Assembly: GCF_001485575.1 (NCBI RefSeq)
Contig: NZ_BCNB01000006.1
Location: forward strand, 1,054,001-1,118,000
Source: Haloarcula sp. CBA1127
GTDB taxonomy: Archaea; Halobacteriota; Halobacteria; Halobacteriales; Haloarculaceae
Length of the DNA: 64,000 nt
Direction: 5' to 3'
Shown here piece after piece: positions 10,857-12,679 of the stretch. The position numbers were made by a program, and so were the translations under genes. Under the pieces are notes generated by a model. It did no database searches, was not told the origin of the DNA, and worked only from the letters and a program-made list of their open reading frames with translations. Positions within the stretch are counted from its first letter, which is position 1; the number at the start of each line of letters is the position of its first letter.

Positions 10857-10910
10857 CTGCTGTTCGGAGTGAAATGGTGGCTCAGGAAAAGTCCATCGTC
10901 ACAAGGGGCT

Positions 10911-10940
10911 CAGCGGGGGTAACATCTCGTCATCGCCACC
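10911..10940. repeat. Direct repeat copy A left of Fic gene
   Basis: A 30-base stretch (begins CAGCGGGGGT, ends CATCGCCACC) matches 12651-12679 on the same strand except for one extra T. Weaker similarity continues rightward (AGCAAGTCGGGG against AGCAGGTCGGAG, then a shared ATCCGTT), so the copies come from one longer ancestral sequence. The two lie on either side of the Fic gene. Confidence 0.8.
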
Positions 10941-11169
10941 GTTACGCTGTAGCAAGTCGGGGCTAAAAAGGAATCCGTTCTAGGAGCGGGACCTTTCGAC
11001 TACGTGATTCAGTTGTCGTTGCATGGAATCAGACAGCGTCTGAATTCGCCCAATACCCTGGCCGCTTCTACCAGCGTCGGCCCAAGAACCAACGTGTTTG
11101 ATCTTACGCAGTCGAACGGACACTATCCATTTCGGTTTAACCTACAATAGCCACGATCTAACACTGTAC
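10941..11169. other. Non-coding stretch before the Fic promoter
   Basis: No convincing gene. The sequence is less GC-rich than its surroundings toward the right end. It contains the degenerate continuation of the direct repeat and short open frames without coding bias. It may be a remnant of a lost gene, but I could not identify one. Confidence 0.4.
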
Positions 11170-11194
11170 CAATTCTAATATTCAGTAGAATATT
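11170..11194. promoter_or_regulatory. Operator-like repeat 1 upstream of fic
   Basis: This 25-base element matches 11221-11245 at 22 positions. It contains the inverted pair ATTCTA/TAGAAT with a short spacer, a form typical of a dimeric repressor site. Confidence 0.6.
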
Positions 11195-11220
11195 GATATT
11201 CTATCCCCCAGACAGGATTG

Positions 11221-11245
11221 CAATTCTAATAATAAGCAGAATATT
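11221..11245. promoter_or_regulatory. Operator-like repeat 2 overlapping the fic TATA box
   Basis: Second copy of the 25-base element, 51 bases from the first, with the pair ATTCTA/CAGAAT. Its end overlaps the TATA-like TATTTTAA at 11242-11249, which is about 28 bases before the fic ATG. A protein bound here would block the promoter. Confidence 0.6.
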
Positions 11246-11273
11246 TTAACTAGATGGGGTTCAAGCACATTCA

Positions 11274-12539
11274 ATGAGAGATGGGTACGATCTTCCGCCA
11301 GATGCACCAGGACAATATATGCCGCTTCGGACCGACCAAAGTCTCCCGAAAGCGTACTTTCCAAACAAACTTCCACCTACTTTCGACCTGTCTGCTGACG
11401 TTATTGACGAAGTGTCGCAGGCGATGTGGTCCCTCGGTCGATTAGAAGGGCTTGGCAGTGAGATCGACAATCCTGGTGCTGTGTTCAGCTCGTTTGTCTA
11501 CAAAGAAGCGGAACAGTCGTCGCAGGTCGAAGGAACAGCCGTGACTGTGTCTGACCTCTATCGATACGATGTCGACGAGCTCCAGATTCAAGAGACAGTC
11601 GAGAGTGACCACGAAGCCGATGTCAGGGAAGCTCGAAACTATATTAGTGCTCTCGATGATGCGATCTCGTTTCTCCAGACAGCCGGTATCGAACGGCAAA
11701 GCATCACGACGGAACTCATCAAGTCGCTTCATGAGCGGTTACTAATCACGGGACGGTCGGACGGGGAGGATCCACTACCGGGCGAATTTCGACCGGGATT
11801 CACTGCAATCGAAGAGCAAGGGCCACACGGTGTCGGGACACAGATTCGGTTCATTCCGCCGAAGCCAGATACGGTTCCGGGGCTGATGGACGATTTAACA
11901 CGATTTGTCCAGCAAGGCTCTGATTGGCCCGTTTTGGTCGATATCGCAATAGCTCACTATCAGTTCGAAACGATTCACCCGTTCAAAGACGGTAACGGAC
12001 GGGTGGGACGACTGCTCGTCGTCCTCATGCTCGTCTCAAGTGGGGTCCTCCATTACCCGATGCTCTATCTCAGTTCGCACATCGAACGACACCGAACTGA
12101 ATATGCCGACAGATTGCTTGCCGTGAGCGAGGACGGTGACTGGGACGGTTGGCTTCAGTTCTTCCTCCGGGGTATCCGCGAGCAAGCACAAGAGGCGTTT
12201 GTCCGAGCAAAACTGCTCGTCGACAAGCGGAAAGAGTACGAATTTCGATATTCGGACGCAGCGACATCGGTCCGTCGCCTCTCCCTCGCGCTGTTCGAAG
12301 ATCCGTATTTTACCGTCCGGGAAGCCAGCGAACGAATCGACGTTGTGTACCAGACGGCAAACAACGCTATCGAAACGCTCGTAACAGATGGTGTTGTGGA
12401 TGAAATAACCGGAAACGACCAGAACCGCGTCTTCAGAGCTGCCGAAATCATGGATATCGTCGAACGGCCCGCGAGCCAACTTCCTGAGTCCGGTGAACTT
12501 GTTGATGTCGAGCAGGCGTGGAGGCTACCCGAGCGATAA
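11274..12539 (+). CDS. Fic family protein (AMPylator type, class II) with C-terminal winged helix
   Basis: A 421-residue Fic protein. The catalytic motif HPFKDGNGR starts at His235. An inhibitory helix motif of the form [S/T]XXXE[G/N] occurs as SSQVEG at residues 82-87 (Glu86), so the protein probably controls itself (class II, N-terminal inhibitory helix). A Fic_N-like region precedes it (LPPTFDLSADVIDEVSQAMW), and the C-terminal 90 residues look like a winged helix (FTVREASERIDVVYQTANNA). Known relatives transfer AMP to target proteins. Codon use is less GC-biased than in neighbouring genes, which with the flanking repeats suggests acquisition. No antitoxin gene is adjacent. It may repress its own promoter. 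Confidence 0.92.
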   Translation: MRDGYDLPPDAPGQYMPLRTDQSLPKAYFPNKLPPTFDLSADVIDEVSQAMWSLGRLEGLGSEIDNPGAVFSSFVYKEAEQSSQVEGTAVTVSDLYRYDVDELQIQETVESDHEADVREARNYISALDDAISFLQTAGIERQSITTELIKSLHERLLITGRSDGEDPLPGEFRPGFTAIEEQGPHGVGTQIRFIPPKPDTVPGLMDDLTRFVQQGSDWPVLVDIAIAHYQFETIHPFKDGNGRVGRLLVVLMLVSSGVLHYPMLYLSSHIERHRTEYADRLLAVSEDGDWDGWLQFFLRGIREQAQEAFVRAKLLVDKRKEYEFRYSDAATSVRRLSLALFEDPYFTVREASERIDVVYQTANNAIETLVTDGVVDEITGNDQNRVFRAAEIMDIVERPASQLPESGELVDVEQAWRLPER

Positions 12540-12650
12540 GTTACCCTCTTGTTGCTGCAGTCGTTCGCTTGTTCGCAGCGGAGCGACATCGTACGTGACG
12601 CACAACGATTTCACCGTGGATCACAGCATCTATTAATAGAAACTGGGCCC

Positions 12651-12679
12651 CAGCGGGGGAACATCTCGTCATCGCCACC
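12651..12679. repeat. Direct repeat copy B right of Fic gene
   Basis: 29 bases matching 10911-10940 apart from one missing T. See copy A. The distance between the copies is about 1.74 kb and the Fic gene is the only intact gene between them. Confidence 0.8.

What the first reader, a model, noticed from the sequence alone, without database searches (positions are those of the whole stretch)
11170..11249. Paired operator overlapping the fic TATA box
Two 25-base elements with 22 matches, 51 bases apart, each contain an ATTCTA/TAGAAT-type inverted pair. The second overlaps the TATA box 28 bases before the ATG. Since the Fic protein ends in a winged helix, self-repression is a simple model, combining AMPylation with autoregulation.
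Basis: inference. Interest (0 to 1): 0.6.

Follow-up and report, generated by a model that had tools for sequence, protein, structure and literature searches.

The report
Paired self-operators of archaeal Fic gene
In a salt-loving archaeon, the gene for a Fic enzyme (a protein that tags other proteins with AMP) carries two matching DNA-binding sites across its own promoter, and relatives keep the 50-51-base spacing while the letters change, which points to a conserved self-control switch on a probable toxin or antiviral enzyme.

Summary
Two 25-bp elements (11170-11194, 11221-11245; 22/25 matches, 51 bp apart) lie upstream of a Fic gene. No other such pair exists in the 64 kb, and none arose in 1,000 shuffles. 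The motif occurs twice in the 4.36-Mb genome, both times here. The second copy lies on the BRE/TATA box of a probably leaderless promoter. Among 52 haloarchaeal Fic-wHTH upstream regions less than 46% identical to each other, direct repeats peak sharply at lags 51 and 50 (z 9.8 and 5.9). Inverted arms about 22-26 bp apart are also enriched, while the motif letters differ by protein clade. Control promoters lack the 50/51 signal. The protein is SoFic-like (Pfam, PADLOC, AlphaFold/Foldseek) with a C-terminal winged helix. The best model is autorepression: Fic dimers bind two phased operators and block TBP/TFB. The Yersinia Fic-HTH protein CccR is a proven precedent, so this is a new archaeal variant, not a new kind. 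Binding is inferred, not shown. In passing: fic is a 1.74-kb insertion beside a C/D-box sRNA gene, ending in a partial sRNA copy.

The parts
11170..11203 (.). Distal operator unit (unit 1): left arm CAATTCTAATA, right side TAGAATATTGATATTCTA
   Evidence: repeat copy 1; same register (-104) in orthologs L005-L008, L038, L039
11221..11253 (.). Proximal operator unit (unit 2) overlapping BRE/TATA: CAATTCTAATAATAAGCAGAATATTTTAACTAG
   Evidence: repeat copy 2; left arm TTCTAATAAT kept in same-genus orthologs
11186..11203 (.).
   Evidence: direct reading
11237..11249 (+). Core promoter: BRE-like CAGAATA followed by TATA-like TTTTAA, 25-30 bases before the ATG, probably leaderless
   Evidence: same position holds CGAAAA + TTTWAA-like sequence in orthologs; inference from haloarchaeal promoter structure
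11274..12539 (+). Fic protein, 421 aa: Fic_N + Fic domain + C-terminal winged helix; SoFic-like
   Evidence: Pfam E 2.9e-19 and 4.9e-18; PADLOC SoFic E 1.3e-102; model and Foldseek
11517..11534 (+). Class II inhibitory-helix motif SSQVEG (residues 82-87)
   Evidence: conserved in the haloarchaeal homologues compared, with conservative changes
11976..12011 (+). Catalytic Fic motif HPFKDGNGRVGR (residues 235-246)
12264..12440 (+). Winged helix-turn-helix, residues about 331-389
   Evidence: secondary structure of the AlphaFold model, pLDDT mostly above 80
10941..12679 (+). Inserted 1.74-kb cassette holding the operators, promoter and fic
   Evidence: empty sites in L196-L199; flanking direct repeat 10916-10940 / 12655-12679

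Best explanation
The two elements are tandem operators for the Fic protein itself. A Fic dimer places its two C-terminal winged helices on the two arms of a unit. The distal unit lies at about -104 to -71 and the proximal unit at about -53 to -21, over the BRE/TATA box. Two dimers bind about 5 helical turns apart, probably cooperatively, and exclude TBP/TFB, so the AMPylase keeps its own level low. Shown here: the elements, their uniqueness in the genome, the core-promoter overlap, the winged helix, and the conserved 50/51-bp geometry. Inferred: Fic binds, it binds as a dimer, binding is cooperative, and the effect is repression.
For: Repeat far above chance and unique in window and genome. 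Lag-51 repeat in 13 clade I orthologs (z 9.2) and lag-50 repeat in 13 clade II orthologs with a different motif (z 9.9); the clade I signal survives without the window's own sequence (z 7.3). In 52 haloarchaeal upstream regions less than 46% identical, lags 51/50 give z 9.8/5.9, the best lag is 50 or 51 in about 21 of 52 (next best lag 2.1), and inverted arms peak at 22-26 bp. 27 of 52 exceed all 15 shuffles for a two-unit arrangement. Control promoters from the same loci give z -2.9 at lag 50 and 2.8 at 51. Winged helix present. Same-genome paralogs have unrelated upstream regions (30-40% identity apart from one duplicate pair), while the nearest upstream match usually lies in another genome in the same protein clade. 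The operators travel inside the fic cassette. CccR precedent: footprinted inverted repeats, mutation derepresses (PMC9755527).
Against: No binding or expression data. Half-site boundaries are uncertain: a motif search over all families found only an AT-rich palindrome, and the window's best arms are 13 bp apart rather than the 22-26 common in relatives. About half of the 52 families show no significant two-unit arrangement. Random DNA-binding has been reported for the homologue CbFic2 (PMC10628234). Similar upstream DNA within a clade can also reflect shared ancestry.
Confidence: 0.77

Rival explanations
1. The paired elements are the binding site of a different, host-encoded repressor or activator that controls fic; Fic's winged helix does something else, such as bringing the enzyme to DNA-bound targets.
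For: No direct evidence that Fic binds. CbFic2 binds random DNA and DNA binding changes its activity (PMC10628234).
Against: The motif is unique to this promoter in the genome, same-genome paralogs carry different elements, and the geometry follows the Fic family over many genera. The segment carrying fic has no other candidate regulator gene.
Confidence: 0.12
2. Fic binds the units but acts as an activator or as a two-way switch: the distal unit recruits or stabilises TFB/TBP, and occupation of the proximal unit represses.
For: Unit 1 lies well upstream of the BRE, where archaeal activators can sit; two units 51 bp apart allow graded occupancy.
Against: Unit 2 covers BRE and TATA in the window and in relatives, which favours occlusion; the proven homologue CccR represses.
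Confidence: 0.08
3. Chance similarity in an AT-rich promoter, with the second copy simply being the TATA/BRE region.
For: Region 11160-11260 is 32% GC in a 64% GC window; the CAGAAT arm coincides with the BRE position.
Against: 0 of 1,000 and 0 of 2,000 shuffles reach 22/25; lag 50/51 is conserved in divergent orthologs.
Confidence: 0.03

Closest known systems
CccR (YPK_0951) of Yersinia pseudotuberculosis, Fic-HTH autorepressor (PMC9755527)
   Same: Fic domain with class II inhibitory motif, C-terminal HTH, dimer, inverted-repeat operator upstream of its own gene, negative autoregulation
   Different: One operator with 10-bp arms spaced by 26 bp; secreted by a T6SS; bacterial promoter. Here two tandem units 51 bp apart on an archaeal BRE/TATA, no secretion evidence, and binding not tested
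SoFic of Shewanella oneidensis and the SoFic defence family (3eqx, 3zcn; PMC12249575)
   Same: Fold and domain order (Foldseek E about 1e-17, TM 0.72-0.85), PADLOC SoFic E 1.3e-102
   Different: 22-25% identity; below the NCBIfam SoFic equivalog cut-off (156.5 vs 550 bits); no AS1-like antitoxin gene identified here
CbFic2 of Coxiella burnetii (8cil; PMC10628234)
   Same: Class II Fic with C-terminal winged helix; DNA binding shown
   Different: DNA used was random sequence; DNA shifts it to a dimeric deAMPylase; no operator reported
Self-repressed toxin-antitoxin operons such as phd-doc
   Same: Fido-fold toxin kept low by operator binding at its own promoter
   Different: In phd-doc the separate antitoxin binds DNA; here toxin and DNA-binding domain would be one protein, as proposed in general by Kinch et al. 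2009 (PMC2686095)

Membership tests
SoFic-type class II Fic adenylyltransferase | Fic_N + Fic domain with HxFx(D/E)GNGRxxR | tested here: met
   Pfam; HPFKDGNGRVGR at 235-246
SoFic-type class II Fic adenylyltransferase | N-terminal inhibitory helix (S/T)xxxE(G/N) | tested here: met
   SSQVEG at 82-87
SoFic-type class II Fic adenylyltransferase | C-terminal winged helix | tested here: met
   AlphaFold secondary structure, Foldseek to 3eqx/3zcn over 370 columns
SoFic-type class II Fic adenylyltransferase | Score above the NCBIfam SoFic equivalog cut-off | tested here: not met
   156.5 bits against a cut-off of 550: a SoFic-like relative, not SoFic itself
SoFic-type class II Fic adenylyltransferase | AMPylation activity, growth inhibition, phage or virus defence | not testable with these tools
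   needs protein and strains
Fic-HTH autorepressor (CccR-like) | Inverted-repeat operator at its own promoter | tested here: met
   repeats present and unique; geometry conserved; exact arms uncertain
Fic-HTH autorepressor (CccR-like) | Fic protein binds the operator and represses | not testable with these tools
   EMSA, footprint and reporter needed
Fic-HTH autorepressor (CccR-like) | Arms separated by 26 bp as in CccR | tested here: inconclusive
   window arms 13 bp start to start; relatives mostly 19-27; CccR 36 start to start

The most novel reading that the evidence does not exclude
Fic proteins with a winged helix, in archaea and bacteria, share an ancient self-operator system in which geometry is conserved but sequence is not. 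Operators come in pairs at spacings close to whole helical turns (50/51 bp in haloarchaea; 30/31, 40/41 and 72 bp enriched in bacteria), while each clade keeps its own half-site. Operator-bound dimers would be the repressing and enzymatically restrained store of the enzyme, so that loss of DNA binding releases both expression and activity.
Probability: 0.3. Interest if true: 0.72.

Novelty: new variant of a known kind. Interest (0 to 1): 0.55.

Why it matters
Fic enzymes act as toxins and anti-phage effectors in bacteria, and how archaea keep them in check is little studied. A self-operator whose spacing survives while its letters drift gives a direct handle: it predicts the binding site of many uncharacterised Fic proteins from sequence, offers matched protein/operator pairs for testing specificity, and makes it possible to ask whether operator binding also switches the enzyme between AMPylation and deAMPylation.

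Tried and rejected
A 26-letter genome pattern with a length error gave no hits; corrected. A motif search over all families found only an AT-rich, TATA-like palindrome, so no shared letters are claimed. The coding control (+100..+194) gave z 5.5 at lag 51 and similar values at lags 18 and 43, ascribed to shared ancestry and codon structure; this is why the test was repeated on regions less than 46% identical and on control promoters. A first control set was badly drawn, overlapping fic or its promoter, and gave z 4.1 at lag 51; it was replaced. Chance repeat: rejected. Sigma-70 promoter scan found nothing, as expected for an archaeon. No tRNA and no Rfam family at gathering threshold in the region.

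Full report
What was claimed.

The observation. It is exact. The copies are 11170-11194 and 11221-11245, 22 of 25 bases alike, 51 bp start to start. In 1,000 shuffles of the 333 bp before the gene the best pair had 19 matches; no other pair with >=22 matches within 100 bp exists in the 64 kb. A pattern covering both copies, allowing 3 mismatches, hits only these two places in the 4.36-Mb genome. The region is 32% GC in a 64% GC window. Additional features: the palindrome TAGAATATTGATATTCTA at 11186-11203 (mismatched only at its TG centre) and a third ATTCTA at 11198.

The gene. ORF 11274-12539 encodes 421 aa with Fic_N and Fic domains, the catalytic motif HPFKDGNGRVGR and the class II inhibitory motif SSQVEG. 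PADLOC gives SoFic at 1.3e-102; the score is below NCBI's equivalog cut-off for SoFic proper. An AlphaFold model (pLDDT 84.7) shows helix-strand-helix-helix-two strands at residues 331-389, a winged helix; Foldseek's best matches are SoFic structures over the full length, TM 0.72-0.85. So 'Fic ends in a winged helix' is right.

The promoter. TTTTAA at 11244-11249 is 25-30 bases before the ATG, the place of the TATA box of a leaderless haloarchaeal transcript (established knowledge). In orthologs the same position holds a CGAAAA-like BRE followed by a T-rich box. This means the CAGAAT arm of the second element sits where relatives have the BRE; in the nearest orthologs it reads CAGAAA. The arm that is best kept is the left one, TTCTAATAAT.

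Comparative test. Upstream regions of 13 close and middle-distance orthologs (clade I, 50-100% identical proteins) have a direct repeat at lag 51 (z 9.2); 13 clade II orthologs (about 50-54% identical) have one at lag 50 (z 9.9) with another motif, TTTACTNAG/CTNANTAAA. Neighbouring lags are much weaker. Dropping the window's own sequence leaves z 7.3. To limit shared ancestry, 52 haloarchaeal Fic-wHTH upstream regions less than 46% identical to each other were used: lag 51 z 9.8, lag 50 z 5.9, and the best lag is 50 or 51 in about 21 of 52, the next best lag having 2.1; inverted arms start 22-26 bp apart (z about 7.5). 27 of 52 exceed all 15 shuffles when scored for two inverted units (3.25 expected), for example L170: AGATAACGA..TCGTTATCT twice, 50 bp apart. 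Eighty-one control promoters from the same loci give -2.9 at lag 50 and 2.8 at 51. The z values are against dinucleotide shuffles and should be read as effect sizes, not exact probabilities.

Operator letters follow the protein, not the genome. The three Fic genes of this genome have the window's element in one and a different pair, GGTTAGC...GCTAACC, in the other two. In the multi-Fic genomes compared, upstream regions of same-genome paralogs are 30-40% identical, the unrelated level, apart from one duplicate pair, while the nearest upstream match usually lies in another genome. This is what self-binding predicts; it does not by itself exclude simple common descent of gene plus promoter.

Bacterial relatives. 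In 51 non-haloarchaeal Fic-wHTH upstream regions, mostly bacterial, inverted repeats are strongly enriched (arms starting 20-26 bp apart, z 13-15) and direct repeats appear at 40/41, 30/31 and 72 bp (z 3.7-6.5), close to whole helical turns. Controls give IR z up to 4.2, no signal at 31, 40 or 41, and z 2.5 and 2.7 at 30 and 72. Some short inverted repeats there may be terminators, so this is a lead rather than a result.

Mechanism. Best supported: Fic dimers bind both units and block TBP/TFB, keeping a potentially toxic AMPylase low. CccR of Yersinia does this with one operator, shown by footprint, mutation and ITC (PMC9755527), and Kinch et al. suggested it in 2009 for Fic-HTH fusions (PMC2686095). 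CbFic2 adds that DNA can change the enzyme's activity (PMC10628234). Shown here: elements, uniqueness, core-promoter overlap, winged helix, conserved geometry. Inferred: binding, dimer use, cooperativity, repression.

Mobility of the gene. A 30-bp direct repeat flanks fic (10911-10940 and 12651-12679). The upstream copy is part of a C/D-box sRNA gene on the minus strand, 10876-10940 (boxes read by eye; Rfam sR1 22.8 bits, below its gathering score). Four same-genus genomes have rhodanese - sRNA - DUF7260 - phoU without fic. The window therefore carries an inserted segment, 10941-12679, ending in a partial sRNA copy plus the palindrome CTATTAATAG. The operators are inside this segment, so promoter, operators and gene travel as one unit, consistent with self-regulation.

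Novelty. Self-repressing Fic-HTH proteins are known; an archaeal one with two tandem operators over the core promoter, at a spacing conserved across a family whose operator letters differ, is a new variant.

Noticed in passing
10876-10940 (minus strand), 10941-12679: fic lies in a 1.74-kb insertion immediately beside a conserved C/D-box sRNA gene; the insertion ends in a 34-bp partial copy of the sRNA's 5' half (12646-12679) plus the palindrome CTATTAATAG (12630-12639). Same-genus genomes without fic show the empty site (L196-L199), and in most same-genus genomes the match to the window stops at or within a base or two of the sRNA's 5' boundary (10940). No report of C/D-box sRNA genes as insertion targets was found in two limited look-ups.
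   Followed up: partly
L194 (G021) and L195 (G029): Further partial sRNA copies delimit neighbouring segments next to fic (about 1.1-1.4 kb); in L195 one encodes a TumE-family toxin (PF20126) and an HVO_A0114-type HTH protein, suggesting a cassette row of toxin-antitoxin-like modules. No recombinase was identified among ten L194 ORFs searched.
   Followed up: partly
L009, L010, L011, L135: Fic genes in other genera, including a 43%-identical paralog (L135), also lie next to the same sRNA, hinting at repeated capture of Fic genes at this spot.
   Followed up: no
L069-L132 upstream regions: Bacterial Fic-wHTH genes show very strong upstream inverted repeats and direct repeats near whole helical turns (30/31, 40/41, 72 bp); some may be terminators.
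   Followed up: partly
G000:C4:88935-90071 and G000:C9:79691-80833 (L002, L003): Two further Fic paralogs (41% identical) on other contigs of the same genome, with a different upstream inverted pair GGTTAGC...GCTAACC; L003's match reads through one TGA.
   Followed up: partly
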